A stretch of DNA of 56,519 bases, from contig CANQCR010000010.1 in assembly GCA_947589735.1 (NCBI GenBank), forward strand, positions 1 through 56,519, written 5' to 3'. This document shows, one piece after another, positions 6,237-35,481 of this stretch. Source of the stretch: an uncultured Bacilli bacterium (GTDB lineage Bacteria; Bacillota_I; Bacilli_A; RF39; UBA660). Both the position numbers and the translations under genes were made by a program. Numbering within the stretch: the first letter of the stretch is position 1; each line of letters starts with the position of its first letter. The notes under the pieces are model-generated. The model saw only the letters and a list, made by a program, of their open reading frames with translations, made no database searches and was not told where the DNA came from.

Positions 6237-6262
6237 AAAAAAGTCTCTATAATTAGAGACTT
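6237..6262 (-). terminator. Terminator closing the secretion-system array
   Basis: The perfect stem AAGTCTCT/AGAGACTT (6241-6262) overlaps the stop codon of the coupling-protein gene and is followed by T6 on the minus strand. It marks the 3' boundary of the array that begins near 27 kb. Confidence 0.9.
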
Positions 6263-8504
6263 AATCATCACCGAAGAAATCATCGAAGAACTGATCATCA
6301 GTAACACCACTAGATCCAGCTGGAACAAAAGTACTCTTTGTCTCATTAACTTGTGGTGCAGATGTAGCAGGCTGAGATGCTGCTTGAGGTATTCCCGTTT
6401 GAATAGATGGTTCTACTGGGGTAGAGGACATAGATACCGGTGCTGAAACAGGTTTGGCATCCGGAGTATTTTCAGCCTCTTTTTGCTCCATTTCAGATAT
6501 TTTAGCATCTATTCTCTTAACTAGATTTTCAAGATTAATATTTTTCTCTATTGGAGGTGCAGCTTTAGGTGCATCACCAAATGGATTGGCGGGAGCACCA
6601 CCGTCAAATGGACTACCACTAGGCGTACCACCACCAAATGGGCTACTAGGTATTCCGCCACCAAATGGAGATGATGTGCCTCCACCAAATGGTGATGGTG
6701 CACCGCCACCAAAAGGTGGTGGAGTTGTTCCTCCAAAAGGTGATGGCTTGCTTCCTCCAGCAGCCGTATCACCATTTATGAAACTATTAATTTTTTCTTC
6801 TCTTTTTTTGTTAACAAATCCCTGTAAATCAAAGATGTGAACAGGTATTTCTGGACGTTTGGGATATTCGGCAATTGGGAAATTATGACCCCAATTCATT
6901 TTGAAGTTAGGCGTTAATTTTGTCTTAAATGGCATCATTCTGATACGCAAAATAATTGTTGACCATTGTTCTAGACGTTGTAAATCACTAACTGTTACAA
7001 GTGGGGTTGACGAAGTTTTTTCTTTCTCTTTAGATTTAACCTCACCACACATTTTACTAATTTCCTCTAGAGCACTTAGTTCGGTACTAATTAAATATAC
7101 GGTATTACCGCAGTTACCTTTTATTGTCTCACCATTTTCTTTTCCATATACTTCATATAGTTGTGAGAAGTTCTGGATAATGAAGGTAAAACGAATATTT
7201 CTTGAACGAGCAGCCGTAACCATCGTCGTAACATCTTTAAGAGGTGGCATATTAGCAAACTCATCAAGAATAAAATTAGTACGATGTGGAAGTTTTCCGC
7301 CACATTCTTGCGCTACAGAAATAAGTGTTTCATAGCATTGCTTTAAGAAGATTGTAACTAAAGTATGATATGTCGTTTTTTCATCTTGAATAACGATAAA
7401 TACAGCTGTCTTCTTACGACCAATATCACGCATATCAAAATCGTTATTGCCTAACATCTCAGACAAATTGGCACGAGATGCGAACAATTGAACCCTTTGT
7501 TTGAATACAGAAAGAATGGAACCTTTCGTATCACTTGGGGCCATCAAAGTAGATGAAGCCTTAACATAGGCTGTACTAGCTGGATCCTTATACTTAAAAT
7601 ATTCCTTAATATATGTTGAATTAGCTAGTTTTTCTTCACCTAATGTACTCATTAAGTTAATACTATTTAAGTTTATCTCTTTTTCATCGCCATCTTCGAA
7701 TAAGGCAAAAGATAGCCCGGCAAAATAGTCAGCCGAAGTGTTTTCCCAGAATGGGTCTTGCCCTTTAGCTGATGGGTCTTTTAAAATATTGGCAGCTAAG
7801 TCCTCTAGCAACTCAATAGATTTATCAATTTTTCCGTCTTTATATAACGAATATGGTAAATACATCGGATTCCAACTATTTCCTTGTTGGGGATCACGGA
7901 AGTTAAGCAAAACTATATTGTAATCTAAACTCCTTAAATAATTCGATGTATTTTCATAAATCTCACCCTTAGGGTCCGTAATAATCATTGATTCATCATG
8001 TTTAGCAAGTAAGTTAACCATAGGAAGTACGGTCGTCTGAGTTTTACCAGCACCAGTAGAACCTATAACTAAGTTATGATACCCACCATTATCAACCCAT
8101 ACTTTTTTAGGCGTCATTATAAGTGGAATACCACCAGCATTAGCTTTTGGAGATAAGGGATCAACAGCCACAACATCAGTATCATGTTGCATTTCCTTAT
8201 CTTTAGCCCAACGAGCGTAATTCTTCTCTTTTTTAGCTCCTATTTGGAATCCAATTCCCTCTTCACGCTCAATGAACCAAGATTGAACGCCCAAAAACAT
8301 TGCTACAATAGCTACTAAAAACAAAACTATAGTTACCGCTAAATACTTTGTTAATGCTGGAATAATTGTTAATCCACAAAATTCGCCATCAGCAACAAAT
8401 GAACCAATATTAGATACAGCCAAGCATATCAAAAAGAAAATAACTGCAGAAAATATGGCAAAAATAACTACATCTTTTGTATCTGCTCGAAATTTTAGTT
8501 TCAC
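6261..8504 (-). CDS. virD4: VirD4/TraG-type coupling ATPase
   Basis: This is the type IV secretion coupling protein: a membrane-anchored hexameric AAA-type ATPase that recruits substrates. Two N-terminal membrane helices (first ~80 residues) precede the P-loop GSTGAGKT near residue 150, the motif TDPKGEIY near 177 and the Walker B NFILDEFANMP near 410. After about residue 570 the tail is disordered, with eight PFGGG-like repeats, a short coiled segment and an acidic C-terminus ending FFDDFFGDD. I choose the GTG at 8504 because GAGGTG lies 5 bases upstream. The ATG five codons earlier overlaps the previous stop and has no ribosome binding site. It is the last gene of the array. No relaxase gene accompanies it. 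Confidence 0.93.
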   Translation of the reverse strand: MKLKFRADTKDVVIFAIFSAVIFFLICLAVSNIGSFVADGEFCGLTIIPALTKYLAVTIVLFLVAIVAMFLGVQSWFIEREEGIGFQIGAKKEKNYARWAKDKEMQHDTDVVAVDPLSPKANAGGIPLIMTPKKVWVDNGGYHNLVIGSTGAGKTQTTVLPMVNLLAKHDESMIITDPKGEIYENTSNYLRSLDYNIVLLNFRDPQQGNSWNPMYLPYSLYKDGKIDKSIELLEDLAANILKDPSAKGQDPFWENTSADYFAGLSFALFEDGDEKEINLNSINLMSTLGEEKLANSTYIKEYFKYKDPASTAYVKASSTLMAPSDTKGSILSVFKQRVQLFASRANLSEMLGNNDFDMRDIGRKKTAVFIVIQDEKTTYHTLVTIFLKQCYETLISVAQECGGKLPHRTNFILDEFANMPPLKDVTTMVTAARSRNIRFTFIIQNFSQLYEVYGKENGETIKGNCGNTVYLISTELSALEEISKMCGEVKSKEKEKTSSTPLVTVSDLQRLEQWSTIILRIRMMPFKTKLTPNFKMNWGHNFPIAEYPKRPEIPVHIFDLQGFVNKKREEKINSFINGDTAAGGSKPSPFGGTTPPPFGGGAPSPFGGGTSSPFGGGIPSSPFGGGTPSGSPFDGGAPANPFGDAPKAAPPIEKNINLENLVKRIDAKISEMEQKEAENTPDAKPVSAPVSMSSTPVEPSIQTGIPQAASQPATSAPQVNETKSTFVPAGSSGVTDDQFFDDFFGDD
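6585..6760 (-). repeat. In-gene tandem repeat encoding PFGGG units
   Basis: About eight imperfect units of roughly 21-24 bases encode proline-phenylalanine-glycine repeats (SPFGGGT and variants) in the coupling-protein tail. The same repeat creates long open frames on the other strand, which are artefacts of composition. Confidence 0.85.
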
Positions 8505-8518
8505 AATTACACCTCGCA

Positions 8519-9253
8519 TTATATTTTATTAGCTTTTTCTTGCTTTTCTTTTAATTTCTTAAATAACAAAATAACACCAGAAATAGAAAGAATAATAATA
8601 CCTGTAACAACAAATATTAAATACTTATTGTCTAATATTTTCTCTTTAATCTTTTCAATTTCTGTTTTGGGCTTATCAACAGTTACTTTCTCTTTTGAAT
8701 TAAATGAGATTCTAATCGTCTTAAGCCCGGTTTCTTCATCATAATTCCAATAATACACATTATTGCCAACACTATCAGCATTGTGTTCAACAACCTTAAA
8801 TGGTAAACTAATCGTAATTCTAGCAGTATCCACAGGTATACTAGTTTGATCTTGCTCTGCATGTGAAAATGCCCCAGAAATCGAAAGTGTCACAATATCA
8901 CCATCAACTTGATAGTCAATAGCATCTTGTGAATATTGACTTGAAAAGATGGTATTCTTAGCGTATTCTTCGATATTAGCATAATCTTTTGATGTTTTTA
9001 TACCGCCAGTTGAATTATTAATAACCGTATCTGTATAGTATCCATTTTCATTTAAAGTGTCAACATATGGACTTAATATACTAGCTATAATTGTTCCAGG
9101 CATTTGATTACCATATTCTTCATAATACTCTTTTGGTTCTGTGGCTGATAATGTTTCCGTTACTGACAAATCATCATTTATTTTAACTTTATAATCAGCA
9201 TTACAACCAGCACATATTATAATTAATATCATTATTAATAATTTCTTTTTCAT
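8519..9253 (-). CDS. Lipoprotein with C-terminal membrane helix (EHNAD family, copy 1)
   Basis: The 244-residue protein has a lipoprotein signal (basic start, hydrophobic run, CAGC with Cys17 as the likely lipidated residue), a beta-rich exported domain, and a C-terminal transmembrane helix at about 212-233 followed by a basic cytoplasmic tail. It shares signal type, topology and the motif VxEHNADxVxxN followed by YYW/YTW with the protein encoded at 10636-11316. The pair therefore looks like diverged paralogs flanking the SpoIID-C39 gene. The layout recalls LppM-like exported domains, but I would not assign that family firmly. AGGAGA lies 8 bases upstream of the ATG. Position inside the secretion operon suggests a structural or assembly role on the outer face of the membrane. 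Confidence 0.8.
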   Translation of the reverse strand: MKKKLLIMILIIICAGCNADYKVKINDDLSVTETLSATEPKEYYEEYGNQMPGTIIASILSPYVDTLNENGYYTDTVINNSTGGIKTSKDYANIEEYAKNTIFSSQYSQDAIDYQVDGDIVTLSISGAFSHAEQDQTSIPVDTARITISLPFKVVEHNADSVGNNVYYWNYDEETGLKTIRISFNSKEKVTVDKPKTEIEKIKEKILDNKYLIFVVTGIIILSISGVILLFKKLKEKQEKANKI

Positions 9254-9255: not shown

Positions 9256-10620
9256 TCAGCTTCTCCTTGCAATAATATAACCTACAGCTTCAGGCTTGAT
9301 AATGTTAGCAAAGCTAAAATTAGCATTATTACTAGAATGATTTGGATCAGCAACTGAAACCTCTCCATTAGAGGTCATACCAGTAAGAACAATGAAGTGA
9401 CCACCAGTCGTAAAATGCCCTTTTTTCATTAGAGCAATGACTAGAGCATTACCCGTTTTTAGTGCATTTAAAACCTCAGTTGAATCCCAAGATTCATGGG
9501 CATCAATGCCATAGGTATTTTTCAATACTGCTGCTAGAACACTACTAGAACTACCGGTACTATAGCAACCTGAATTTTGACATACAGCTTGAGTAGCTTT
9601 TTTAGGATCGGTGCTACGACCCATACTAGCCGCAACAATAGCTACTGATGTTGGACCACATCCATGACTTTGAATTGTAGCCCAATTACCATATTTATCT
9701 TTAATGCTTGGAGTATTAACATCAACACCATAATAAAATGAAGCATAATCATTTTGATTAAAATATGCAATTTTACCAAAACTTGAATTTAAATATTGAT
9801 AACTATCAGCGCCTGTATCAAGTTTTTTTATTGGTTCTTTATAGAATAAATCAATAATTTGATCATATTTATAATGTTCACCAATTGCTAAATACATAGC
9901 AATCGTTTGACTCATTCCCCAGTGATGGGCATTATAAGTCCCTAATGATGTTCCAAAAACACCAGGAGTATTAAATACTTTCGTCATTGATGGTCCATTC
10001 CATATCCAGTCACTATTAGGATCATCACTCCATCTTTGAAACTTAATGCTCCAGCCGGAACTATCATTTCTAGTATACCACTGACTAGCTGGATATGATT
10101 GATAAGATGTTACAGCAACTTTATCATTACGCACTACGACTAGATGGTCGGTTTCTTGAGCTGCTTTTACGCATAACTGTCCACTAGCACTATTTTTATT
10201 AACTGCTTTATATACCTGAAATCCTTGACTACTTCCAACATTACAATTACTAGAATTTAATTTGGAACCGATTAAGAAAGACCTTGCAGCTATAGCTTGA
10301 GCTTTCATCGCCTCAAACTTAGTTTCACTAGCACCCATTTCGGCATTTACAACACCAGCAACATAGTCCTCTAATGGAACAATTTGGCCACCAACCGTTA
10401 CATTTTCACAAATACCATTGTAACCAAATAATTCAAATCCACCTGTATGGCGATATACAATATCCTTATATAATTTATAGAATTCATATATGTCTTGTCT
10501 AGTACTTTTGACTACACTTTCACGAGCCTCAGAAGAGAATTCATAGGATTTGGTTTCTTGAGGCAATATAAAGAAAAAGATACTTGATAATATACATAGT
10601 ATTTTTATACTTTTTTTCAT
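9256..10620 (-). CDS. Fusion of SpoIID-type transglycosylase and C39-like peptidase domains
   Basis: A signal peptide (about 1-24) is followed by a SpoIID/LytB-like domain: LEDYVAGVVNAEM at about 83-95 with the catalytic-type Glu94, KAQAIAARSF, and HHWGMSQ near 232. SpoIID domains cleave glycan strands of peptidoglycan. From about 295 a papain-like C39/CHAP-type domain follows, with SHGCGPTS (Cys321), GGHFIVLTG (His408) and VADPNH (Asp425) forming a plausible triad. An exported two-domain enzyme could cut both glycan and peptide parts of the wall, or process an exported substrate. The ATG at 10620 follows GAGGTG by 6 bases. It lies between two paralogous lipoproteins in the secretion operon. 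Confidence 0.87.
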   Translation of the reverse strand: MKKSIKILCILSSIFFFILPQETKSYEFSSEARESVVKSTRQDIYEFYKLYKDIVYRHTGGFELFGYNGICENVTVGGQIVPLEDYVAGVVNAEMGASETKFEAMKAQAIAARSFLIGSKLNSSNCNVGSSQGFQVYKAVNKNSASGQLCVKAAQETDHLVVVRNDKVAVTSYQSYPASQWYTRNDSSGWSIKFQRWSDDPNSDWIWNGPSMTKVFNTPGVFGTSLGTYNAHHWGMSQTIAMYLAIGEHYKYDQIIDLFYKEPIKKLDTGADSYQYLNSSFGKIAYFNQNDYASFYYGVDVNTPSIKDKYGNWATIQSHGCGPTSVAIVAASMGRSTDPKKATQAVCQNSGCYSTGSSSSVLAAVLKNTYGIDAHESWDSTEVLNALKTGNALVIALMKKGHFTTGGHFIVLTGMTSNGEVSVADPNHSSNNANFSFANIIKPEAVGYIIARRS

Positions 10621-10635
10621 TACTACCACCTCATA

Positions 10636-11316
10636 CTATAAACGATTAGCTTCCTTCCCTTGCTTAAACTTCATATATAAGAAAAGTCCACTAACTAAAA
10701 TGATTAAACCAATGATTAACAAAGTAAAATTAGTCTTTGTTTCTTGAGTAATTATTTCTTCTTTAGGCATTTTAATATCGATATTAACATTATCTTGATT
10801 ATCACGATTAATAATCCAAGTATATGTATTTCCGTTTACTTTATCTGCATTATGTTCAGTGACCTTACGATCTGTTGTGAAATTAATTTGTACTTCATCA
10901 CCATACAAACAATAAAACTTGCCACTAGCAGAAAAAAAGGCTCCAGTTTTTCCATCACTAAAAGACGATGACTGAAAGCAAAGTTTTTTTGCTTGTGATT
11001 TATTATATTCATCTAAAGTATAATCATATTTTAAAGTAACTATTGTACTAGATACTGTTTTATTAACTGTTTTATCATATTTTATATCTTCGTTATCAGC
11101 AAAAGGATACTGATCCATTTCAATAAATGGTGTTATAGGATCATCAAGTTCTAATCCCAATGCTTCATCTTCGGGGGTCAATTTAGGAATATCACTATTA
11201 CTTATCGTAGTAATAATTTCCTCTGATATTTTGCCATCTTCAAATTTTAAATTATATTGACTAGAACAGCCGGTTAAAAGGATAGTGAAAACTACAATAA
11301 AAATAATTTTTTTCAT
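10636..11316 (-). CDS. Lipoprotein with C-terminal membrane helix (EHNAD family, copy 2)
   Basis: The protein begins MKKIIFIVVF with a good lipobox LTGC (Cys17), then an exported beta-rich domain and a C-terminal helix at about 196-215. The motif VTEHNADKV with NTYTW matches the lipoprotein encoded at 8519-9253. The frame extends upstream into the previous gene, but the ATG at 11316 is preceded by AGGATAGGTGAT and starts the signal peptide, so it is the real start. The two lipoproteins may act as a pair in the same membrane complex; that is inference from context. Confidence 0.8.
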   Translation of the reverse strand: MKKIIFIVVFTILLTGCSSQYNLKFEDGKISEEIITTISNSDIPKLTPEDEALGLELDDPITPFIEMDQYPFADNEDIKYDKTVNKTVSSTIVTLKYDYTLDEYNKSQAKKLCFQSSSFSDGKTGAFFSASGKFYCLYGDEVQINFTTDRKVTEHNADKVNGNTYTWIINRDNQDNVNIDIKMPKEEIITQETKTNFTLLIIGLIILVSGLFLYMKFKQGKEANRL

Positions 11317-11324
11317 CTTATCAC

Positions 11325-13220
11325 CTATCCTTCGTACCAAGATCCATAACCAGCTACTCGACATGTAGTAAGAGGGTAACTCAATTCCATAACAGAGTTA
11401 CTCATATTACCTTCAATAGTAATAACCCTATCCCCTTCAACTCTTTGAACAATCGCAATGTGATCTAACCTATCACCATAAACTGTAGGCATTCTACCAT
11501 TCCAATTACAATTCCAATCATAGAAAATTAAGTCGCCTGGTTTAGGTGTATAAGGTTCGGTTGAACCATTTTTACCCTTAAATTTTGGTAGTCGATCATT
11601 CCAATAAAAATTAATATTAGGATCTTCACTTTCATACATCCAATGGGCAAAGCCATATACAACGCCACTTTTAACAGGGATGATATCAGATAATTTAGTA
11701 TTATTGTACTCAGTATTAGCAACTACCCAAGATACAAAAGCTGCACACCAAGCACTACCACTACTACCACCCCAACCCATAAACTCTTTATATTTAGCGC
11801 CACCATGGGCAGATGGATCTTCCAATTGAGCCACAGCTAGGTTTACCATAACTTCAGCTAAATTGTTGCCTGCTATACCTTTTTTAGGATACATTTTTTT
11901 ATCAATATATTCTAATAAAAACTCATCATATTTATCCAAGTCAATTTCATAAGTACTGTATTTAGAATAACCAGAAGAACATGGTAATCTCTTTTCGCCA
12001 CCTGGCTCAAAATACTCATCTTCTACATCGATATCCGTTCTAGAAGTTTTACCACAGCTTTGAACGGTTGTCTTCTTAACCATATTTTTAGCTAAAATAT
12101 TTAAATCATACCGTGAATCATCACTATCTAGATAACGATAGCCACTAATTCTAGTAAAATCTGTATCCCAGTCCAATTCTGAAGGTGTACTCATATCAGA
12201 AGCTTTGTCTTTATCGTATCCACCTAAATTAGCTTCCATCCCTTCTTCTTGCGTATCCGCACTATATAAATCAGTGGCTACTAACAAAAACCAGTCTAAA
12301 TCAACACCATACTTACTTTTATATCGATTAGCTAAGTCAGCCACTTTTAAATAATAAAGAACTTCTGGTCTATCTGAGCAATCTGAACCAGAACAAGTCG
12401 GTTCTGATGAAAAAACATTACCTAAAATTTTCATTCTTTCATAATATTCATCAGGTATTGTTTCACCTGATCCCATTCCCATGCCTAACTGCAAATTAGA
12501 AGTATCGCCCATTCCTTTACCGGAAGGATCTCTACCATTAATTAAATCAACAGCCCCAGAAATGCCATACTCATCAATTACTTCATCAACTAATCCAGCT
12601 GCCAAATAAGAGCTAGTTCCATTTTCTAATAAATCACCTAATACAGCGATTACAAAGAAAAGAATAATCACTGTTATAGGTACAACCATTACAATTACCT
12701 TAACAATAACACGAGGAATATTAAAAGAACCCTTAATTAATTTATCAAATAATTCCTGTCCCTCATCATTTTGCTTTTTATCTTCTGAATTAGAACCAGT
12801 ATCATTAGATGAACTGTTAGAAGGTTCTGCTTTAGATATACCATCAGCAGCAGCTTTTTGACCACGATTAGAGATGGCGTTTTTTACGCCACTCGCAAGT
12901 GCTAATGCTTTACCAGGTAGTCCACCAACGGCACTAGCAAGTTTAGGAAGGGCACTTTGATTATTTTTCTTTCTTCTTAAATCATCACCAGCGTTATCAA
13001 TAGCAGCTTTATTAGGTGTTCTTCCTAATCCCCTAGGAGGTTCCTGGCGACGTGGTGGAAGTGGTGAAGATGGAATCTCACGTTTTCCTAAATTACCTTG
13101 CTGACTTTTAGCAGCCGCTAAAGAAGCATTATCTTTAGCGGCATGGGCAGCATTAAATTTTTCTGCTTGACCACTACTTTGAGCAGTACTATCTTTTATA
13201 GGAGCTTGTCCGTTGTTCAT
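11325..13220 (-). CDS. VirB1-like membrane-anchored cell-wall hydrolase with CHAP domain
   Basis: The 631-residue protein has a charged, low-complexity cytoplasmic N-terminus (1-165), one membrane helix (about 171-198), an exported middle region with paired Cys residues, and a C-terminal CHAP amidase/peptidase domain. The likely active site is Cys492 (SAWCAAFVSWV), His587 (DHIAIV) and Glu603 or Asn605 (TIEGN). Gram-positive conjugation systems carry such membrane-anchored hydrolases (PrgK/TcpG types), often with an additional lysozyme-like domain. The stretch RYKSKYGVDLDWFLLVAT (about 299-316) could be a remnant or variant of one. It lies directly downstream of virB4. AGGTGATAAG precedes the start. 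Confidence 0.87.
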   Translation of the reverse strand: MNNGQAPIKDSTAQSSGQAEKFNAAHAAKDNASLAAAKSQQGNLGKREIPSSPLPPRRQEPPRGLGRTPNKAAIDNAGDDLRRKKNNQSALPKLASAVGGLPGKALALASGVKNAISNRGQKAAADGISKAEPSNSSSNDTGSNSEDKKQNDEGQELFDKLIKGSFNIPRVIVKVIVMVVPITVIILFFVIAVLGDLLENGTSSYLAAGLVDEVIDEYGISGAVDLINGRDPSGKGMGDTSNLQLGMGMGSGETIPDEYYERMKILGNVFSSEPTCSGSDCSDRPEVLYYLKVADLANRYKSKYGVDLDWFLLVATDLYSADTQEEGMEANLGGYDKDKASDMSTPSELDWDTDFTRISGYRYLDSDDSRYDLNILAKNMVKKTTVQSCGKTSRTDIDVEDEYFEPGGEKRLPCSSGYSKYSTYEIDLDKYDEFLLEYIDKKMYPKKGIAGNNLAEVMVNLAVAQLEDPSAHGGAKYKEFMGWGGSSGSAWCAAFVSWVVANTEYNNTKLSDIIPVKSGVVYGFAHWMYESEDPNINFYWNDRLPKFKGKNGSTEPYTPKPGDLIFYDWNCNWNGRMPTVYGDRLDHIAIVQRVEGDRVITIEGNMSNSVMELSYPLTTCRVAGYGSWYEG

Positions 13221-27141: not shown

Positions 27142-27927
27142 TTAGAATTGCATCAACTGCATCATTGATAAGAACATAAGAGCCATACAACCACAACCTG
27201 TGAACACTAACATGATCAAAGTCTGATTTTCCATAGCTTCTAGACGTTCTTTATATTTTTGCTCACGAGCTTTATTCTGTAAAGATGAAACCGTTCGTGA
27301 GAAAGACATTACTTGTTCATGCTTATTCTGTTGTCCGCCTAATCCTAAACGATATAGTAAACGCATCATACGCATTGAATCACGAACGGGATATTCGTTA
27401 GCGAAATCGATATATGGTTGAATAGAAGAATCACCACTATCGATACGAGCAACTAATCGTCTTAGACCTGGTTTAAATACATCAGGAGCAGCATCAATAC
27501 TACGGCTTAGGGCAACGGGAACAGTATAATGTTGAACTAAGATTTCCAAACTCTTTAAATAGTATGGTAACATTGTATCAATGTAATGCAAATTGGCTTT
27601 ATAATATTTCTTTAAATTCATATATGATGATTTAAAAACTAAATAGCCGACACCGCAAGCAATAACGGCATACATCATACTCATTTGATTCATGAAAATG
27701 AAGAAACATAAAACGCCAGCAATAATACCATCTCTTAAACGTCTTTGGAATAACGCTCCAACATCTAAATTACGTCCAGGATATTTTACTGATAATAAGA
27801 ACTCGTAGTCTTCTTCCATTAAATGGCTTAAAACACCACCAGTATCACTGATAAACTTTTTTGTATCAACGACACGGTTATAATTTAATACGAAGACAAT
27901 AATTACACCTATAAGTATAAACCACAT
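27142..27927 (-). CDS. tadC: TadC-like pilus platform protein
   Basis: This 261-residue GspF/T2SSF-domain membrane protein has an N-terminal helix, a helix pair near 70-110, a cytoplasmic helical domain (YYLKSLEILVQHYTVPVALS, then GLGGQQNKHEQVMSF), and C-terminal helices ending MALMFLSMM. TadB and TadC form the inner-membrane platform on which the CpaF ATPase drives pilus assembly. The start codon overlaps the tadB stop (TAATG). Last gene of its operon. Confidence 0.88.
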   Translation of the reverse strand: MWFILIGVIIVFVLNYNRVVDTKKFISDTGGVLSHLMEEDYEFLLSVKYPGRNLDVGALFQRRLRDGIIAGVLCFFIFMNQMSMMYAVIACGVGYLVFKSSYMNLKKYYKANLHYIDTMLPYYLKSLEILVQHYTVPVALSRSIDAAPDVFKPGLRRLVARIDSGDSSIQPYIDFANEYPVRDSMRMMRLLYRLGLGGQQNKHEQVMSFSRTVSSLQNKAREQKYKERLEAMENQTLIMLVFTGCGCMALMFLSMMQLMQF

Positions 27928-28856: not shown

Positions 28857-30176
28857 CTAATTAGCTGTATTGTTTTGATTCATAACAGTCTGATTAGGCA
28901 TAACTGTTGGCCTAACCATATTTGGATTAACTGGTCTTACGCCTTGATTTGGTGAAACCGCCACATTAGTAGGCGTTACTGATGGATTTTGCCGTTGTGG
29001 ATTATTAACGGCTACATTGGGAGTTGGATTCGTAGGACTTGATATAAACGAATCAATCTTCATTCCACCAGGCGTATCAGCACTATCAACTTCAAGAGTT
29101 GATTCCCCAGTATTTACATCTTCTTCTTTTATTAACCCTTCTGGTAATAATACTCCTTGTGCCTCTAAATAATCAAGAAGATATTTAGTTGGCTTATGTT
29201 TGATAATATGACCATCCGGTGTTTTACGATATATAATATTGCATTTAGGCTCGTTTTCTTCGGTTACATAAAACTCACAGACTTCGGCGATTTCCCGGAC
29301 GAAACGTTGAGTTTTTTTATCTTGATAACCGCGAACATAAACGCCTAATTGAATATATCGATAAATTGTCTTCAAGAACTGATCAATATCTTGACTCGTC
29401 TCCATCAAACTATACATACGATGTGGTATGGAAGTAGCCTTATCGGCGTGGATAGTAGACAAAATATAGTGTCCTGAAGAAATAGAGTTACGAGCGGCAG
29501 TTACCGCCTCAGCACTACGAACTTCGGATAGTAAAATCCATTTTGGGTTTTGACGCATGCAAGATACAAGCACATCGGTATAACTTGCTACGTTGTTGGT
29601 TTTCATGGCAACGATATCTCGTTGTGGAAAAATACGATCCAAGTGTAGTTCCAATGTATCCTCTATTGTTATAATTTTTTCATTTTCTCTAGTGTGAGAA
29701 GCTAAATATTTAACAAACTCTGTTTTACCAGAACCAGTCTCACCACTAACAATGATATTACAGTGTCCATGAACACAATGAATTAAAAAGTCATGGATAT
29801 CTTCTGAAATATACTTATCTTTAATAATTTTATCACGTTCAAGACGAATCTTAGCTGGCGTTTTACGAATAACGCAAGCGATTCCGTTTCGCGCGATTGA
29901 TTCGTGGATAAAGTTAATACGGAGCTCGGCATCCTCACTATCAAGGAAAGGGTGAGCGGCGTTAAAACTATGACCAACGACATTTGAACATTGAAACGCT
30001 AACTTCTCCATAAAATTGTTATCAATAGCTTGATTTTCAACTCTGAAAATACCATGTGATAGAGTTTTTAACCATATTTGGCCACCATTACTATAAGAAA
30101 TATCGGTAACATCATCGTTATCAAGAAATTGTTGTAATGGGCCAAAGTCCATTTGCTCAAATATGTTATTTTCCAT
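28857..30176 (-). CDS. cpaF: CpaF/TadA pilus assembly ATPase
   Basis: The secretion ATPase of the Tad/type IVc pilus. A short N-domain (about 1-100) precedes the catalytic part: Walker A GETGSGKT (145-152), the Asp box IEDTLEL (171-177), Walker B WILLSEVRSAEA (213-224) and the His box GHYILSTIHADKA (235-247). After about residue 350 an Asn/Pro/Val-rich, probably disordered tail of some 80 residues ends the protein. Such a tail is not part of the family core. VirB11 is a related ATPase of type IV secretion systems, so in principle this enzyme could also serve the VirB4/VirD4 apparatus, but the tadB-tadC neighbours favour a pilus ATPase. Confidence 0.94.
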   Translation of the reverse strand: MENNIFEQMDFGPLQQFLDNDDVTDISYSNGGQIWLKTLSHGIFRVENQAIDNNFMEKLAFQCSNVVGHSFNAAHPFLDSEDAELRINFIHESIARNGIACVIRKTPAKIRLERDKIIKDKYISEDIHDFLIHCVHGHCNIIVSGETGSGKTEFVKYLASHTRENEKIITIEDTLELHLDRIFPQRDIVAMKTNNVASYTDVLVSCMRQNPKWILLSEVRSAEAVTAARNSISSGHYILSTIHADKATSIPHRMYSLMETSQDIDQFLKTIYRYIQLGVYVRGYQDKKTQRFVREIAEVCEFYVTEENEPKCNIIYRKTPDGHIIKHKPTKYLLDYLEAQGVLLPEGLIKEEDVNTGESTLEVDSADTPGGMKIDSFISSPTNPTPNVAVNNPQRQNPSVTPTNVAVSPNQGVRPVNPNMVRPTVMPNQTVMNQNNTAN

Positions 30177-30205: not shown

Positions 30206-31093
30206 TTAGTTAGCTGGCGTTACATTTGAAGCATTGTTAGCATTTGAAGTTGTATTTGAATTTGAATCAGTTCCTTCTTCTGGAGTTTCTGGTTCAACAA
30301 CTGGATTTTCAGGTAACTTAGCAGATAAGTTTTGAATATAATCTCTTAAGTATTCACTAGATACATTTACTTCTAGATTTTCTTCTGGAGTACCACCATG
30401 AGGTACAACGATTAAATCTATTTGTGTACCATTTAAGTATTCAGCTTTCTTTAAAACGTCATGAATCTCTTTTTGAAGACCGAAGTTTAAGAAGGCTGGT
30501 GTGCCAACATCTTGAGAACTTCTAAATACATCTTTACCTTCAGAGTCCGTAACAGCTAATACTTCTAGGTTACTTAACATCTTACCAAACATCAACATGT
30601 TTTGTTCATTATAAGCGCGAACATAGAAGTCTACATAGTCTCCAGGTTGGATAGAGTTACCAAATGTTGTTGTTGTATTAACAGCAAAATAATATGGGAT
30701 GTTTCTGTTACCTAGAGCATCTTCACCAACTAAAGTAATCCAATCACCAGGTAAATCTTCCTTGTTAACAACAACACCTGCATAGAACATACTTCCTTCT
30801 GGAACAGTAGATCCAACGCCAGTATACTTACCAACGATATCATTTCTGTTTTCAATAACACCAGTTGGTTTAGCAGCATTAGCAACTCTAACTACCGTTA
30901 CATCTTCAGAAGTAATTAAAGTTTGTGGATTAATTGTTTTAGCTGCAACTGGAACATCAACTAAATTTGTAGCATTATTAACAGTACTTGTATATAGGAA
31001 ATACAAGATAACTAAAATAGCCACAACACCAATAATGGTTACAGTATTTTTATTTGTAAAAAACTTTTTTAATGAAATTGCTAAATTATTCAT
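30206..31093 (-). CDS. cpaB: CpaB/RcpC-like pilus assembly protein with SAF domain
   Basis: This 295-residue protein has one N-terminal membrane helix (about 18-35) and then a SAF/CpaB-type domain (VPVAAKTINPQTLITSEDV at about 47-65, and a downstream VDFYVRAYNEQNMLMF beta region). It ends in a Thr/Asn/Pro/Glu-rich low-complexity tail. In Gram-negative Tad systems CpaB assists the outer-membrane secretin. No secretin is expected or seen here, so it probably helps assembly at the wall side. It lies upstream of cpaF in the operon. Confidence 0.87.
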   Translation of the reverse strand: MNNLAISLKKFFTNKNTVTIIGVVAILVILYFLYTSTVNNATNLVDVPVAAKTINPQTLITSEDVTVVRVANAAKPTGVIENRNDIVGKYTGVGSTVPEGSMFYAGVVVNKEDLPGDWITLVGEDALGNRNIPYYFAVNTTTTFGNSIQPGDYVDFYVRAYNEQNMLMFGKMLSNLEVLAVTDSEGKDVFRSSQDVGTPAFLNFGLQKEIHDVLKKAEYLNGTQIDLIVVPHGGTPEENLEVNVSSEYLRDYIQNLSAKLPENPVVEPETPEEGTDSNSNTTSNANNASNVTPAN

Positions 31094-31127: not shown

Positions 31128-31547
31128 TTACTGACTTACATATTTCGTCTCTAGAATAGCATCAATACGATTCATTAAAGCAATTCTAGTCTGCTGTGAA
31201 CGTATTGAGAACCAAGCTGACATATCAAAAGTGCTTAAGTTGATACTTACTTTTGGTGGTTCTTCATGAACATCATAAATATCAATTTGATATGTATGAG
31301 CTAGGGTTGCATCTTCAGCAAAGCGGCGATAGAAGCTTGCAACGAATTTTTCTTGATCAATTCTAATTGTTTGATCATTTCGATAAGCTGGCAAATCCAA
31401 AGCATCAAACATAGCTGCCTCCGTTGTTTCCTTTAACAGTTCATAGTTGTGTTCGCTCGTATTTGTGACTGTTTGAAAGTAATAAACCAAAAAAATTGAT
31501 ATGATACCCAAACCAACAATCAACACTGCCCAAAAAGATTCTTTCAT
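31128..31547 (-). CDS. Small pilin-like membrane protein, first gene of the Tad motor operon
   Basis: This 139-residue protein starts MKESFWAVLI, with a membrane helix at about 5-25 and an exported domain of about 110 residues with no Cys. The MKES start matches the pseudopilin-like genes at 25577-26622, though the exported domain is different (no Cys, helical). It could be a minor pilin or an assembly accessory protein. AGGAGGTGA is a strong ribosome binding site. A hairpin/dyad abutting a TATAAT box lies upstream. Confidence 0.7.
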   Translation of the reverse strand: MKESFWAVLIVGLGIISIFLVYYFQTVTNTSEHNYELLKETTEAAMFDALDLPAYRNDQTIRIDQEKFVASFYRRFAEDATLAHTYQIDIYDVHEEPPKVSINLSTFDMSAWFSIRSQQTRIALMNRIDAILETKYVSQ

Positions 31548-31779: not shown

Positions 31780-34700
31780 TTAATTTCTTGGACAACCAAC
31801 GAAATTACCATTTTTATCTGGTTTAACATAAGCTAGGGCTCTATCAATTGTTGATTTTCCAGGTACGCAGCTACCCTTTAAGACTGTTCCACCATGATTT
31901 TTAAATACGCTTTCTTCTCCATCAGTACCAGCTAAGTGTGATAAGAAACGACTTGAGCAATATTTATATAAATCTTTTGCACCTATTATTTCCGCATCAC
32001 TTGCTGTATTTCCGGTGTAGTTAGCACAGTAGTATCCTGTATATCCAGGTAGTGAGCCCGCGTTACTTCCATCATACATACGCATTTCTGTGTATGGATC
32101 AGCAGCATTGTATGTTCCTGATGCAGATCTTGCTTGACGATTTAACTCTCTAATGTAGCGAATATTAGATGTATTTAATTCAAGAGAATACATTGGCTCT
32201 TTCTGATATATGTCTTCACTTAATACATCTTCTATTTCAGAGTCTGTAAGCTTAGCCCAGTTACGACCTCTTATACGTCCTGTTCCTAAAATACCAGGGA
32301 AGGCATTATCAACAACGTTTTTATTTGGCGTGATATTGGTTGAAGAGATTAAATCAATAACTCTAAAGACAACATCAATATCTCTAATATAACGTCTTCT
32401 ATTATATGGATTATCTGGATCATCGTTAGGATCAGGGTCACCAGATTCAACTTTATCATCATCTTTTGGATCACAATATGCTGGAGAATCATCAGTTAAA
32501 ACTAAATTACCCATTGAATCTTCTTCATACTTACAATCGTTACCAAATAATTCATTGATAATTCTAAATGGACAACCATATTCTAATTGGGTTGAACCAA
32601 ATACTTTTTTTATCAACATATCAAAGTGAGTTTCAGAATCAGCATCAGCAAATCCTACTTTTCCACCCATATTTGTCTTAGTACCTAAATGATCAAATGT
32701 TAGTTTTAGTAAGCCATCAAATAATCCATCACCGTTACCATTTTTATCTACCCAATCAGCGCCATATGTACCATTTGGAGTCATAAAGGCTGTTGGAAGA
32801 CCATAACCTAACCATTTATACCAAGGAAGGCCTTTAGAACCAGCTGGCTTTTTAAGGATATCTTCTTTAGCTTCAGGTTCACCTGTTGTTTTATTACCAT
32901 ACCAATTTAGTGGGTCATGGTAAACGATATTAAATGTTCCTGAAGTTGTTAAATCATTAGGGAAAAGTCTAGAACACGTACTGTCGTTACAAACTTTTCC
33001 TTCGATATCAACAGTTTGTACAGGGTTAGCCCAGTCGATACTAACATAACTATTGACGCCACTATATTTATATTCTTCTAGTGGATCAACATAATCTAAA
33101 AGTGTTGAATCAAAGTCACCCGTAGTTACCGGCGTAATCCATCCGTTAGGGCCAGTAACATCATAATCAACTCTAATACCATTACAATTTGGCAAGTATT
33201 GTGAGCCATCAGAACGTAAAACGTAATCTTGACGAACAACACACTTCTTAGTGAATGTAATTGTACCTAAAACATTATTTTTAGTATCACGTTTTAAGCC
33301 CCATTTGAAGATAGTACCAGCTCTAATAGCAGGATTATCGCTATCATCAGTACCTGTACCAGCTTCGCCTGGAAGCGCAAATGACACTTGTTCACTACAA
33401 TATAAGTTACAAACATTCTCGCCAGAGCCTACTTTTTTAGCCCAGCTTCCGACAATACCTGTTTGACGACCATTAGAGTCTAAGTTAGTATAACCGAAGC
33501 CCATTTGCCAACACTGCTGAGCAGCCTCGCTAGTTTCACCGAAGGCAAAGTCCTCTAAAACAATTTCTTTATCCCCTGTTACACAGGCATTATCAATATC
33601 TTCATTAGCTGGACAATTTTTGATTTGTTCACATCTTGGGCCATCACGACCAACAACTGTCCACCAACGTTCTAGTAGTAATAATGTATCATCACCACTA
33701 CGGTCAACGCTTACAGCGGTATGTAGCCAATCAAAGTATTCAGCATATTCAGCTTGTAGAGCCTCGTCGTCCTCTCTGCCTTTATATGCAATTTTATGAA
33801 TTCTATTAACATTATTTTGATCACAAGGCGCAACAGGGCAACCAGTTAAATTATTACCATAATAATCAGGGAAGAAATCAGATTTCAAACGCCGTTGAGC
33901 CTTCATATAAATTGCATTAAATTGTGATTTATAATAACCAGTTTCTAAACTATCATCAGATGTTATCATTTGTTTTCCCGTATTATCATCTGTTGACCAG
34001 TCAACTAAAGCTTCTTCATAATCACCATAGTTTTTAAGAGCGTTGGTTCCAGGCGCAGCATTAGCTATTCTACATCTATCACCTGGGTTTTTACCACAGG
34101 CATTATATACCGCTCTCGCCTTTTGACCACAAGTAACTTTAGAACCGCAACTATATTCTAGGAAATCACTATATTTAAATAAGAATTTAGCTTGTTCAAA
34201 CGAATAATGGCTAACAAAATATATTCCAACATCACCACGAGTTGAGAAATCACTCTTAAGGCTATCATATAATGCTTTATTGTCCGTCTCAATAGCCGTC
34301 TCTAAAGATTGACGGCATTTGTCAGGGTTAAACCAAAAATCCAAAAGACTTATAGTATCATTAGTGTTATAAAAGCCGTTATAGTTTAAGTCACCAATAC
34401 TATCTGGGTCTTGGCTTGTCCAATGTTCATAATAAGCCCAGCCATCATCCTTGCTTGAATCAACGTTCCAACCTTTCTGTGGAGCAGGTTCACTCCATAC
34501 CCACCAACATGTAAGGGCGCTATCATAAGGGTTGCTAGATGGCCAACCAAAGTTTTCACCAACACCATTCTTACACATATAGGCTACTTCAGAAACAGTA
34601 CCAAGTAACGCTTGATTATAACTCTGATTGCCATTACGTTCATCGGTATAGTTATGTAATACAAGGTCTTGCTCAAAAAGGATGTATGTATATTGTAAAG

Positions 34701-35481
34701 ATTGTAAATTTAACGCAGCAGCCTGAACTTGATCTTTAGGGTTATTGTTAGGGCTATATTTATGGCCATAGAAAGCCCAAGTAAAAATGTTATTGAAAAC
34801 TTTATAATCTGGAATGGAATTTTTACAATAAGATCTAACATATTTTCCGGTATCATCATATGGGTCTTGCATGCAATCAAGCCAGTTTACAACAGCATGA
34901 TTCATATTTTGTGGTTGAACGGCAGCGCCCCAACCACCTTTAATAAAATCACTTCGCCATGACTCATAATATCCGGTGCCATTTTTCATAACTGGCATAT
35001 CAAGATCATCATCAATATATAAAATAGGCATCTTGTATGATGATGAACCACCTTTATTGGCGGATAATGACGCATCACCATTTCGAAGCTCAAATTTAGT
35101 TGGTGTTCCATAAGTATAATAATACTTATCACGATTTCTTACAGAGTCTGTTCCATCGCCATACCACCAGAAGTCATACGATTTCGAAAGAATGTTCTTT
35201 CCTCCATTAGATCCTAAAGGGTTCCCACTTTTGTCACGGCATACCTCGTGAGTATCAGGGTTATAGTAACATCTTGTACCTTTATATTTATCAATAATCG
35301 TTATACGAAAACCGATACCCCAGTAACTACACCAGCCACCAGCACAACCAACTTGGGCATCACCGCCACCTTCACTACCGTGATCGTTTGCAGCTTTAGT
35401 CGTATCAGTAGTCACCATAAAAAGTAGTGCAAAGCACATAATAAGTAGTAAATATTTTAACTTTTTGGCTATTTCTTTCAT
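31780..35481 (-). CDS. Giant secreted Cys/Trp-rich protein of unknown function
   Basis: A signal peptide (MKEIAKKLKYLLLIMCFALL, cleavage about residue 30) leads a protein of 1233 residues with many Cys and Trp residues and no C-terminal anchor, sortase motif or obvious repeats. Many Cys occur in short pairs (CAGGWC, GCPVAPC, RCEQIKNC, VCNLYC), so extensive disulfide bonding is likely. I recognise no catalytic motif. The frame extends five codons further to a GTG, but GAGGGG lies 7 bases before the ATG at 35481. It lies directly upstream of the Tad motor operon and could be an adhesin or pilus-associated surface protein. That is inference from position and export only. Confidence 0.82.
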   Translation of the reverse strand: MKEIAKKLKYLLLIMCFALLFMVTTDTTKAANDHGSEGGGDAQVGCAGGWCSYWGIGFRITIIDKYKGTRCYYNPDTHEVCRDKSGNPLGSNGGKNILSKSYDFWWYGDGTDSVRNRDKYYYTYGTPTKFELRNGDASLSANKGGSSSYKMPILYIDDDLDMPVMKNGTGYYESWRSDFIKGGWGAAVQPQNMNHAVVNWLDCMQDPYDDTGKYVRSYCKNSIPDYKVFNNIFTWAFYGHKYSPNNNPKDQVQAAALNLQSLQYTYILFEQDLVLHNYTDERNGNQSYNQALLGTVSEVAYMCKNGVGENFGWPSSNPYDSALTCWWVWSEPAPQKGWNVDSSKDDGWAYYEHWTSQDPDSIGDLNYNGFYNTNDTISLLDFWFNPDKCRQSLETAIETDNKALYDSLKSDFSTRGDVGIYFVSHYSFEQAKFLFKYSDFLEYSCGSKVTCGQKARAVYNACGKNPGDRCRIANAAPGTNALKNYGDYEEALVDWSTDDNTGKQMITSDDSLETGYYKSQFNAIYMKAQRRLKSDFFPDYYGNNLTGCPVAPCDQNNVNRIHKIAYKGREDDEALQAEYAEYFDWLHTAVSVDRSGDDTLLLLERWWTVVGRDGPRCEQIKNCPANEDIDNACVTGDKEIVLEDFAFGETSEAAQQCWQMGFGYTNLDSNGRQTGIVGSWAKKVGSGENVCNLYCSEQVSFALPGEAGTGTDDSDNPAIRAGTIFKWGLKRDTKNNVLGTITFTKKCVVRQDYVLRSDGSQYLPNCNGIRVDYDVTGPNGWITPVTTGDFDSTLLDYVDPLEEYKYSGVNSYVSIDWANPVQTVDIEGKVCNDSTCSRLFPNDLTTSGTFNIVYHDPLNWYGNKTTGEPEAKEDILKKPAGSKGLPWYKWLGYGLPTAFMTPNGTYGADWVDKNGNGDGLFDGLLKLTFDHLGTKTNMGGKVGFADADSETHFDMLIKKVFGSTQLEYGCPFRIINELFGNDCKYEEDSMGNLVLTDDSPAYCDPKDDDKVESGDPDPNDDPDNPYNRRRYIRDIDVVFRVIDLISSTNITPNKNVVDNAFPGILGTGRIRGRNWAKLTDSEIEDVLSEDIYQKEPMYSLELNTSNIRYIRELNRQARSASGTYNAADPYTEMRMYDGSNAGSLPGYTGYYCANYTGNTASDAEIIGAKDLYKYCSSRFLSHLAGTDGEESVFKNHGGTVLKGSCVPGKSTIDRALAYVKPDKNGNFVGCPRN

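What the first reader, a model, noticed from the sequence alone, without database searches (positions are those of the whole stretch)
6261..35481. Combined Tad pilus and VirB4/VirD4 secretion locus without relaxase or integrase
Seen: CpaF, CpaB, TadB, TadC, a TadZ-like protein, an Flp-like pilin and pseudopilins lie in co-oriented units with VirD4, VirB4, VirB6-like, PrgI-like and a CHAP hydrolase. Known: Tad pili and type IV secretion systems are usually encoded apart, and conjugative elements carry a relaxase and mostly an integrase. None was seen here, and the locus is flanked by core genes (rnr-smpB, scpAB). Inference: a chromosomally fixed hybrid or co-regulated surface/secretion apparatus that may deliver proteins or DNA or build a composite fibre.
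Basis: partly seen in the sequence, partly recalled or inferred. Interest (0 to 1): 0.87.

Follow-up and report, generated by a model that had tools for sequence, protein, structure and literature searches.

The report
Fixed Tad-pilus and conjugation-type secretion locus
A family of small-genome gut bacteria carries, as a fixed part of its chromosome, a DNA-transfer-type secretion machine merged with a pilus motor but without the enzyme that starts DNA transfer, so the machine probably serves contact with neighbouring cells rather than plasmid spread.

Summary
A 29-kb co-directional locus (6261-35496, minus strand) encodes VirD4, VirB4 (split into two genes), VirB6-like, PrgI-like and CHAP proteins, six VirB2-like pilin paralogues, and a Tad set (CpaB, CpaF, TadB, TadC, TadZ-like, Flp-like, TadE-like). 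It is a family trait of RF39-type gut Bacilli: VirB4 and CpaF orthologues occur together in 153 of 193 family genomes, neither in 18. Protein divergence tracks a neighbouring gene (RmuC), so inheritance looks vertical. No relaxase or integrase was found in the part of the window scanned; the genome's one MOBP relaxase lies on another contig. Some relatives have the halves separated, or one alone. New points: the locus's pilin-like proteins lack the canonical prepilin signal (0 of 239), and five congeners in which no prepilin peptidase was detected keep the locus. Best reading: a domesticated, relaxase-free conjugation apparatus with a Tad-type motor and VirB2-like pilins, probably a contact-dependent exchange or effector machine resembling the Patescibacteria T4SS. 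Function is inferred, not shown.

The parts
6261..8519 (-). VirD4-like coupling protein (CD1115 family) with Gly/Pro-rich C-terminus
   Evidence: PF02534 E 7.7e-54; NCBIfam conju_CD1115 289.7 bits over cut-off 250
8519..9253 (-). LppM-like lipoprotein with C-terminal TM
   Evidence: PF21946 E 1.6e-5, just below cut-off
9256..10629 (-). SpoIID + C39-like peptidase surface protein (wall-active candidate)
   Evidence: PF08486 7e-16, PF13529 9e-13
10636..11364 (-). second lipoprotein
   Evidence: PF08139 lipobox
11325..13220 (-). membrane-anchored CHAP hydrolase (VirB1-like)
   Evidence: PF05257 2.1e-9
13244..15031 (-). VirB4 ATPase part
   Evidence: NCBIfam VirB4_plasma 1.5e-104, model 295-891 of 894, below equivalog cut-off
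15028..15579 (-). separate VirB4 N-terminal protein
   Evidence: same model positions 98-276, 1.4e-13; hhalign 96.5%
15545..15874 (-). PrgI/VirB3-like membrane protein
   Evidence: same position in 73 of 73 named loci with room; weak profile match 20%
15899..18052 (-). VirB6-like membrane protein
   Evidence: ICE_Mbov_0396_TM 1e-7, pLS20_p028 1e-4, below cut-offs
18077..19255 (-). VirB2-like pilin with ectodomain (1 of 6)
   Evidence: PF18895 3e-4, below cut-off; alignment
19342..19746 (-). VirB2-like pilin without ectodomain (2 of 6); 12/12 sigma-70 match upstream at 19801-19773
   Evidence: alignment; promoter scan, where total matches equal shuffles
19809..21047 (-). conserved single-pass 412-aa protein, pilus-tip or channel candidate
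   Evidence: 24 sequences aligned; AF2 pLDDT 85.6; no PDB fold match at E 0.001
21081..21491 (-). VirB2-like pilin (3 of 6)
   Evidence: alignment
21510..22205 (-). VirB2-like pilin with ectodomain (4 of 6)
   Evidence: alignment
22217..23029 (-). VirB2-like pilin with ectodomain (5 of 6)
   Evidence: PF18895 1.3e-4, below cut-off; alignment
23034..24515 (-). VirB2-like pilin with ectodomain (6 of 6)
   Evidence: PF18895 2.7e-3, below cut-off; alignment
24534..25547 (-). TadZ-like protein
   Evidence: no Pfam or NCBIfam hit; conserved position
25577..26083 (-). TadE-like pseudopilin 1
   Evidence: hhalign TadE family 91.6%; no prepilin motif
26101..26622 (-). TadE-like pseudopilin 2
   Evidence: hhalign TadE family 91.6%; no prepilin motif
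26658..26909 (-). Flp-like pilin with conserved N-terminus lacking a G-x4-E signal
27142..27927 (-). TadC-like platform protein
   Evidence: hhalign 97.6%
27927..28832 (-). TadB-like platform protein
   Evidence: hhalign 97.0%
28857..30176 (-). CpaF/TadA/VirB11-type ATPase, the genome's only T2SSE match
   Evidence: PF00437 5e-29; single genome match
30206..31093 (-). CpaB/RcpC-like SAF protein
   Evidence: SAF 23.8 bits over cut-off; RcpC below cut-off
31128..31547 (-). DUF5411 single-TM pseudopilin-like protein
   Evidence: PF17424 4.4e-47
31780..35496 (-). giant Cys-rich secreted protein (adhesin candidate); likely ATG start at 35481
   Evidence: no Pfam match; large secreted proteins at the same place in relatives; AF2 of the N-terminal 560 residues failed

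Best explanation
A conjugation-type T4SS (VirD4, split VirB4, VirB6-like, PrgI-like, CHAP) was captured into the chromosome of an ancestor of this gut Bacilli family (RF39 type), lost or never had its relaxase and integrase, and is combined with a Tad-type motor (CpaF, TadB, TadC, CpaB, TadZ-like), Flp/TadE-like small pilin proteins and an array of VirB2-like pilins. Shown: gene content and order, family-wide vertical retention, no relaxase found in the locus, lack of canonical prepilin signals, persistence in congeners without a detectable prepilin peptidase. Inferred: CHAP and SpoIID proteins open the wall; the CpaF-TadB/C motor moves the pilin-like and/or VirB2-like subunits in and out of the membrane; the 412-aa and giant surface proteins make contact; VirD4 and VirB4 pass substrates (proteins, or DNA without a dedicated relaxase) to or from a neighbouring cell. 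It would work like the relaxase-free T4SS of Patescibacteria, with its own motor.
For: VirB4 orthologue in 166 and CpaF orthologue in 162 of 193 family genomes: both 153, neither 18, one only 22; Fisher p 5e-11, uncorrected for kinship and incompleteness. In a class sample of 296, VirB4 matches of 67% identity or more fall in 34 family genomes; the only others at E 1e-90 are two f19 genomes at 32-33%. Distances follow the neighbour RmuC: VirB4 r 0.76, CpaF r 0.81. No gap over 86 bp from Flp to VirD4 in the window; in relatives the TadC-Flp gap has median 68 bp. Of 16 scanned family genomes with the VirB4 orthologue 13 have no PF03432 relaxase. dN/dS 0.03-0.42 in two pairs without prepilin peptidase, one gene pair not computable. 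Canonical prepilin motif in 0 of 239 locus N-termini against 7 of 9 controls. Peptidase undetected in G000, G003, G006, G007, G008, which keep the locus; present in G001, G002, G005, G009, G010. In split genome G026 the VirD4 match lies beside the Tad unit, not beside VirB4.
Against: The halves are separated in some genera and stand alone in others, so physical union is not obligatory. VirB4's nearest sampled relative is an f19 element with no CpaF or Tad match in 14 kb, so the halves may have different histories. No substrate, effector or phenotype is known. No VirB8 was recognised. Drafts G004 and G011 of the same genus lack both halves, so the locus is dispensable. TadZ-like and PrgI-like identities rest mainly on position. 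Gly6 is nearly invariant in Flp (65 of 69), so a short cleaved leader is possible where a peptidase exists.
Confidence: 0.6

Rival explanations
1. Two independent machines, an adhesive Tad-type pilus and a T4SS, share a locus for co-regulation only.
For: Separated in several relatives; VirB4 only in 13 and CpaF only in 9 of 193 genomes, some of them not explained by contig breaks (G139; G128, G117, G069); VirB4 and CpaF trees give different nearest relatives.
Against: Operon-like continuity crosses the functional border (Flp, TadE, TadZ run into VirB2/VirB6/VirB4); a VirB2-like gene stays next to TadZ in the split genomes G018, G026 and G031, and VirD4 with the Tad unit in G026; the combination recurs on plasmids of other lineages; five CpaF-only cases (G012, G093, G101, G146, G201) reach a contig end right beside the junction.
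Confidence: 0.25
2. An immobilised conjugative element that still helps mobile elements move in trans, for example the relaxase/recombinase unit on contig C4.
For: VirD4 is kept; G000 has a PF03432 relaxase beside a recombinase-like gene on another contig, and no second VirB4 match in the genome.
Against: 13 of 16 scanned family genomes with the VirB4 orthologue have no PF03432 relaxase, so helping such elements hardly explains family-wide conservation; other relaxase families were not searched genome-wide.
Confidence: 0.1
3. A DNA-uptake machine feeding ComEC, as reported for the Tad locus of Micrococcus luteus (cited in PMC5696575, passage), serving nucleotide scavenging.
For: ComEC in 18 of 19 family genomes, also in G000, G006, G007 and G008, where no other T2SSE-type ATPase and no prepilin peptidase was found; PurC in 0 of 19.
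Against: G004 and G011 keep ComEC without VirB4 or CpaF orthologue; in G003, which has the locus, the ComEC frame is interrupted by stops; VirD4 is normally an outward coupling protein (established knowledge).
Confidence: 0.1

Closest known systems
pLS20-type conjugation loci (pBS72, P. larvae and Paraclostridium plasmids; partly Listeria pGMI16-004; pAW63 in PMC1196294, passages)
   Same: CpaF/VirB11 with TadB/TadC-like proteins and TadE-like small TM proteins without prepilin signal, VirD4 CD1115; in the first three also VirB6, PrgI-like, VirB4N, VirB4 and a lytic enzyme; thioester surface protein in Paraclostridium
   Different: Plasmid-borne, MobP2 annotated in pBS72 and P. larvae, MOBP typing in the others; their VirB4s form a clade (100/100) that excludes this family; no CpaB, TadZ or large VirB2 array seen in the stretches read; no VirB4 in the Listeria stretch read
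Exiguobacterium pEYLC1.2 and Mycoplasmatota zrk4 plasmid hybrids
   Same: pEYLC1.2: CpaB, AAA (TadZ-like), CpaF, TadB-like, TadC-like, TadE-like next to pilin, VirB6, PrgI, VirB4N, VirB4, VirD4. zrk4: T4SS_pilin, VirB6, PrgI, VirB4N, VirB4, SAF, AAA_31, CpaF, T2SSF protein
   Different: On plasmids; pEYLC1.2 has a MobP3 relaxase; their CpaFs group with canonical Tad/VirB11 (93/98); zrk4 pilins carry canonical prepilin signals in 3 of 4
Patescibacteria (Saccharibacteria) T4SS, PMC12102498 (passages) and PMC12857230 (section 22)
   Same: Chromosomal, mostly relaxase-free monoderm T4SS in small genomes with VirB2-like pilin arrays (2-11 genes), reported essential in one epibiont
   Different: Different phylum; the text seen treats T4P as a separate machine and names no Tad motor in the T4SS locus; VirB4 kinship not tested here
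Cutibacterium acnes linear plasmids with tad and VirB4 (PMC5696575, passages)
   Same: tad locus beside VirB4-type conjugation genes; some TadE N-termini are said not to be signal peptides; authors call a functional link unclear
   Different: Plasmid, Actinobacteria; one pilin has a canonical-like cleavage site
Canonical Tad pilus (e.g. second locus of G009, L057)
   Same: CpaF, TadB, TadC, TadZ, Flp, TadE (names other than CpaF given by eye)
   Different: Its Flp and TadE carry KG|QALLEY/QALIEF signals; its CpaF is in another clade

Membership tests
Tad pilus | CpaF/TadA-type ATPase | tested here: met
   PF00437 5e-29; but its clade lies outside the canonical Tad/VirB11 clade
Tad pilus | paired TadB and TadC platform proteins | tested here: met
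   order and hhalign to TadB/TadC-like proteins of plasmids and other genomes; no Pfam hit
Tad pilus | CpaB/RcpC | tested here: met
   SAF over cut-off, RcpC below cut-off
Tad pilus | TadZ | tested here: inconclusive
   position only; no Pfam/NCBIfam hit
Tad pilus | Flp/TadE with G|xxxxE prepilin signal | tested here: not met
   0 of 239 full N-termini, 7 of 9 controls
Tad pilus | prepilin peptidase (A24) available | tested here: not met
   no PF01478 match in the 95% complete G000; no match to a congener's PilD at E up to 10
Conjugative T4SS of monoderms | VirB4 and VirD4 ATPases | tested here: met
Conjugative T4SS of monoderms | VirB6, VirB3/PrgI, VirB1 | tested here: inconclusive
   CHAP met; VirB6 below cut-offs; PrgI weak
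Conjugative T4SS of monoderms | VirB8 | tested here: inconclusive
   none recognised by Pfam; 412-aa protein has no fold match
Conjugative T4SS of monoderms | relaxase in the unit | tested here: not met
   none among the 39 scanned window ORFs; one on another contig
Conjugative T4SS of monoderms | integrase or mobile boundaries | tested here: not met
   core-gene flanks kept in congeners; RmuC beyond VirD4 in 25 of 30 loci
Conjugative T4SS of monoderms | MPF_FATA class by CONJScan profiles | not testable with these tools
   profiles not on hand
pLS20-type system | VirB4 in the pLS20-type clade | tested here: not met
   pLS20-type clade 100/100; this family with an f19 VirB4 100/100 (family alone 98/99) elsewhere
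pLS20-type system | thioester (TIE) adhesin | tested here: inconclusive
   no Pfam hit in the giant or 8 homologues; one homologue (G018) has YCMD near residue 75
Patescibacteria T4SS | relaxase-free chromosomal T4SS with VirB2 array | tested here: met
   PF18895 matches below cut-off
Patescibacteria T4SS | VirB4 inside the Patescibacteria clade | not tested
   no Patescibacteria VirB4 fetched

The most novel reading that the evidence does not exclude
A single composite, prepilin-peptidase-independent filament machine: a Tad-type motor that moves Flp/TadE-like subunits without canonical leader and VirB2-like pilins through a relaxase-free VirB/VirD4 channel, fixed in a whole family of gut Bacilli that seem to lack purine synthesis, as a contact organelle for taking up or delivering macromolecules, with the same kind of motor module also driving pLS20-type conjugation. 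This would be a type IV filament class that works without prepilin cleavage, and a Gram-positive T4SS with both a VirB11-class ATPase and VirB2 pilins.
Probability: 0.3. Interest if true: 0.85.

Novelty: new variant of a known kind. Interest (0 to 1): 0.7.

Why it matters
A 2025 review says Gram-positive T4SSs universally lack VirB11 (PMC12857230, passage) and another paper says their T4SS classes lack virB2 (PMC12102498, passage). This locus and the plasmids compared here have a VirB11/CpaF-type ATPase with platform proteins, and this locus has a VirB2-like array. It gives a second lineage, outside Patescibacteria, of small-genome monoderms that kept a relaxase-free T4SS as chromosomal equipment, which makes the question of what such T4SSs do testable by comparison. 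Pilins that need no peptidase, if confirmed, would change the definition of type IV filaments. The C. acnes authors left open whether Tad and conjugation genes on one replicon act together (PMC5696575, passage); recurrence in separate lineages suggests they do.

Tried and rejected
Direct descent from pLS20-type plasmids was considered after gene-content matches and rejected for VirB4: separate clades. A first CpaF tree put this family outside a canonical Tad/VirB11 clade (100/96); adding the Exiguobacterium sequence kept three groups but left the family's place between them unresolved, with supports of 93/98 and 89/93 for the other two, so no origin is claimed for CpaF.

A strictly leaderless reading with Glu3 replacing Glu5 was weakened: some genera have MKAATG, and Gly6 is nearly invariant in Flp (65 of 69 with the MK[ED] start).

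The first motif test cut test sequences at a guessed start but not the controls; with the same cut the controls fall to 4 of 9. The report therefore uses the untruncated test: 0 of 239 against 7 of 9. The cut version gave 1 of 236 and 1 of 240, at an implausible site.

A ComEC-feeding role was weakened by G004, G011 and the broken G003 frame. The thioester-adhesin idea for the giant got no Pfam support and its structure model failed (pLDDT 37.7). The 412-aa protein had no PDB fold match (best E 0.28) and no PDB sequence relative at E 1. A hairpin before Flp, seen by eye and not among the nine listed by the scan, looked like a unit boundary; of 53 distinct relatives' gaps of 60 bp or more one has a terminator-like hairpin (37 of 400 random 230-bp windows, which are longer than most of the gaps). 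The f2 genome G034 has a CpaF unit with an A24-like gene and no VirB4 match in the stretch read. One Exiguobacterium and one zrk4 platform-size protein show no pairwise BLASTP similarity.

Rows dropped: the linkage count uses only 130 genomes whose VirB4 and CpaF rows were both printed (150 and 149 rows); 59 of these have the genes on different contigs and were mostly not resolved. The 80 named loci are the closest of 260 and so favour intact loci; only 52 had enough upstream DNA. Genomes beyond the printed lists were assigned by elimination. The distance tests dropped eight loci listed by hand as duplicate contigs.

Papers: PMC12857230 section 22 and passages; PMC12102498, PMC8092201, PMC11730352, PMC6668835, PMC5696575, PMC1196294, PMC3244431, PMC8035907, PMC13155120, PMC12306168, PMC7301438 and PMC11753425 passages only; PMC8460266 abstract and outline. 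That no description of this locus was found rests on searches of one open library; their listings were capped, and one search was swamped (2,831 papers, 8 shown, none of them with RF39).

Full report
What is there. The window is one 56.5-kb contig of a 1.44-Mb draft genome (26 contigs, 95% complete). From 35496 down to 6261 the genes lie on the minus strand: giant secreted protein, DUF5411, CpaB, CpaF, TadB, TadC, Flp-like, two TadE-like, TadZ-like, an array of six VirB2-like pilins interrupted by a 412-aa single-pass protein, VirB6-like, PrgI-like, VirB4N, VirB4, CHAP, a lipoprotein, SpoIID/C39, an LppM-like protein and VirD4. From Flp to VirD4 no gap exceeds 86 bp. In this genome a hairpin followed by T residues (by eye) and promoter-like sites precede Flp. 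In relatives the TadC-Flp gap has median 68 bp, and of 53 distinct gaps of 60 bp or more one has a terminator-like hairpin, so the ancestral state looks like one long operon. Promoter-like matches in the region were no more frequent than in shuffles (102 against 102.1), so single promoters are weak evidence.

Whose it is. The closest named relatives of VirB4 are MAGs, many from rabbit, rumen, deer and chicken gut by their record titles, among them Candidatus Coprosoma. PMC8035907 (passages) assigns that genus to order RF39; I infer that the family searched is of the RF39 type. RF39 is described as genome-reduced with auxotrophies, and as lacking genes for de novo nucleic acid synthesis (PMC12306168, PMC13155120, passages). 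Consistently, PurC was found in 0 of 19 family genomes against 7 of 13 others of the class.

Fixation. In a first sample 29 of 34 family genomes (own included) have the VirB4 orthologue and 30 of 34 the CpaF orthologue. In 193 family genomes the counts are 166 and 162: both 153, CpaF only 9, VirB4 only 13, neither 18 (counted by hand, unlisted genomes by elimination; Fisher p 5e-11, uncorrected for kinship and assembly gaps). In G117 and G128 the VirB4 match is only E 4e-96 and 1e-99, the level of the other, 31-34% identical VirB4s; counting them as absent gives p 3e-10. In a class sample of 296 genomes, 34 of the 38 family genomes listed have VirB4 at 67% identity or more; the only others at E 1e-90 are two f19 genomes at 32-33%. 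No plasmid record reaches 60%. The right flank scpAB and the left flank RmuC/RNase R/SmpB recur in congeners where the stretch read reaches them, and RmuC lies beyond VirD4 in other genera too, in 25 of 30 named loci with room. Pairwise distances of VirB4, VirD4, CpaF and TadB correlate with those of RmuC (r 0.76, 0.63, 0.81, 0.83 with 46, 46, 18 and 24 genomes; Mantel p 0.0005 each). This speaks for vertical inheritance.

Linkage and its exceptions. Among 130 genomes whose two positions were both printed, 65 have VirB4 and CpaF within 20 kb (median 10.3 kb), 6 have them 33-59 kb apart on one contig, and 59 on different contigs of drafts. In 52 named loci with at least 9.9 kb upstream of VirB4, TadZ is present in 51; VirD4 is downstream in 55 of 55, PrgI in 73 of 73, VirB4N in 76 of 76 and VirB6 in 65 of 66 loci with room. 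These loci are the nearest relatives, so the figures are favourable. In G018 and G026 the halves sit inside different contigs; in G031 the two units lie about 31 kb apart on one contig. A VirB2-like gene then stays next to TadZ, and in G026 the VirD4 match is beside the Tad unit. Five of the nine CpaF-only genomes (G012, G093, G101, G146, G201) reach a contig end right after the VirB2-like gene or PrgI. G069, G117 and G128 have a Tad unit with no VirB4, VirB6 or VirD4 match in the 4-9 kb read beyond it, and G139 a T4SS unit with no Tad match in the stretch read. So the union is strong but not absolute.

Relaxase. PF03432 gives one match in the own genome, on contig C4, next to what look by eye like the 3' part of a serine recombinase, a cytosine methyltransferase and an HNH-type gene: a mobilisable-element remnant near a contig end that does not include the locus. 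Of 16 scanned family genomes with the VirB4 orthologue, 13 have no PF03432 match. In G006 and G014 the matches over the cut-off lie about 3 and 9 kb from other, 23-26% identical VirB4s; three weaker matches there include one 2 kb from a 34% VirB4 and two with no VirB4 listed nearby. Only this relaxase family was searched genome-wide.

Peptidase. The distinct N-termini of Flp-like, TadE-like and DUF5411 proteins of the locus (77, 135 and 27) were tested for the motif [GAS]-x4-[DE] given in PMC3244431 (passage): 0 of 239 match, against 7 of 9 canonical controls (G009's second Tad locus and T4P; zrk4 plasmid). Of 13 equivalents from pLS20-type and Exiguobacterium plasmids and the G038 contig none matches. 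Flp starts MK[E/A]A[A/T]GE with Gly6 in 65 of 69, so a six-residue leader cannot be excluded by sequence alone. A natural experiment helps. In the own genus, G001, G002, G005, G009 and G010 have the A24 peptidase and further T2SSE-type ATPases, which in G009 belong to a T4P cluster and a canonical Tad locus. In G000, G003, G006, G007 and G008 no A24 was found (PF01478; congener PilD at E up to 10) and no second CpaF-like ATPase beyond a 20-residue fragment in G008 (in G000 also PF00437), yet they keep the locus, with dN/dS 0.03-0.42 in the two pairs compared (synonymous sites are near saturation, one gene pair not computable). Their completeness is 79-95%. Seven of the twelve genomes of this genus show no A24; two of the seven (G004, G011) also lack VirB4 and CpaF orthologues. 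A24 is also unseen in several more distant CpaF-bearing genomes (G091, G105, G117, G208), where assembly gaps cannot be ruled out.

Kin and origin. Profile comparison links the locus to Tad-like modules of pLS20-type conjugation loci: TadC, TadB, VirB4N and TadE-like at 92-98% probability, with DUF5411 and PrgI weak. pBS72 and a P. larvae plasmid carry VirD4, TadC-like, CpaF/VirB11, TadB-like, VirB6, PrgI-like, VirB4N, VirB4 and a MobP2 relaxase; a Paraclostridium plasmid has the same parts in another order, with MOBP typing; a Listeria plasmid shows CpaF, two platform-like proteins and VirD4 in the stretch read. pEYLC1.2 of Exiguobacterium carries MobP3, VirD4, a pilin, VirB6, PrgI, VirB4N and VirB4 plus CpaB, an AAA protein, CpaF, TadB-like and TadC-like proteins; profiles of this family's proteins match its CpaB at 129 bits and TadC at 34 bits. 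The zrk4 cold-seep plasmid has a similar set, with no relaxase annotated in the parts read. A same-class genome, G038, has a contiguous CpaF-TadB-TadC-VirB6-PrgI-VirB4-VirB4N run. Trees: the family's VirB4 groups with an unsplit VirB4 of an f19 element (100/100) that has VirD4 and, by eye, a relaxase-like gene but no CpaF match in 14 kb; five pLS20-type VirB4s form another clade (100/100); zrk4 and Exiguobacterium pair at 89/88. The family's CpaF is a deep clade of its own (100/100), apart from canonical Tad/VirB11 (93/98) and from the pLS20-type group (89/93). Hence Tad/T4SS combinations occur with at least three VirB4 groups, and this one is not a simple pLS20 descendant. Long branches and modest deep support limit these trees.

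Function. The nearest functional parallel is the Patescibacteria T4SS: chromosomal, mostly relaxase-free, with VirB2 arrays, essential in one epibiont (PMC12857230 section 22; PMC12102498 passages). The locus here adds its own CpaF/TadB/TadC motor. I commit to a contact-dependent exchange or delivery machine (confidence 0.6 for architecture plus this class of function; the exact substrate is unknown). Myxococcus Kil shows that Tad-like machines can serve contact-dependent killing (PMC8460266, abstract). The 412-aa protein, conserved across genera, gave a confident model with no PDB match and is the best candidate for a system-specific part.

Novelty. [quoted passage not shown] The chromosomal, relaxase-free, family-wide form with a full Tad set and VirB2 arrays in RF39-type Bacilli did not appear in ten searches of one open library, whose listings were capped.

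Noticed in passing
window 35752-37209 (+): IS transposase (DDE_Tnp_1_6) inserted between the giant gene and the genes toward scpA.
   Followed up: no
G000:C4, locus L169 1-8600: PF03432 relaxase with (by eye) a serine-recombinase part, cytosine methyltransferase and HNH-type gene near a contig end: a mobilisable-element remnant.
   Followed up: partly
L057 (G009:C3): A second, canonical Tad locus with KG|QALLEY-type signals in a congener; no second CpaF-like ATPase was found in the window's own genome.
   Followed up: yes
L056 (G034:C7) 793-8449: CpaF unit with a short A24-like gene near a WXG100-like gene and a large membrane protein (names by eye), possibly a Tad/T7SS neighbourhood.
   Followed up: no
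L194 (Exiguobacterium pEYLC1.2): Plasmid with MobP3 relaxase, T4SS and a Tad set; typed non-mobilizable by MOB-suite.
   Followed up: partly
L144/L146 (CP074574.1): Cold-seep Mycoplasmatota plasmid with T4SS genes plus a Tad set, canonical prepilins and a 1650-aa protein; no relaxase annotated in the parts read.
   Followed up: partly
window 19801-19773 (-): Perfect sigma-70 consensus (TTGACA-17-TATAAT) upstream of the VirB2-like pilin without ectodomain.
   Followed up: no
family genomes G000-G018: PurC found in 0 of 19; ComEC in 18 of 19, also in genomes where no T2SSE-type ATPase other than the locus's was found; the G003 ComEC frame holds stops.
   Followed up: partly
window 15028-15579 and 13244-15031; L142, L143, L144, L183, L187, L055: VirB4 split into N-terminal and ATPase genes in several Gram-positive systems, unsplit in the f19 element nearest to this family.
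   Followed up: partly
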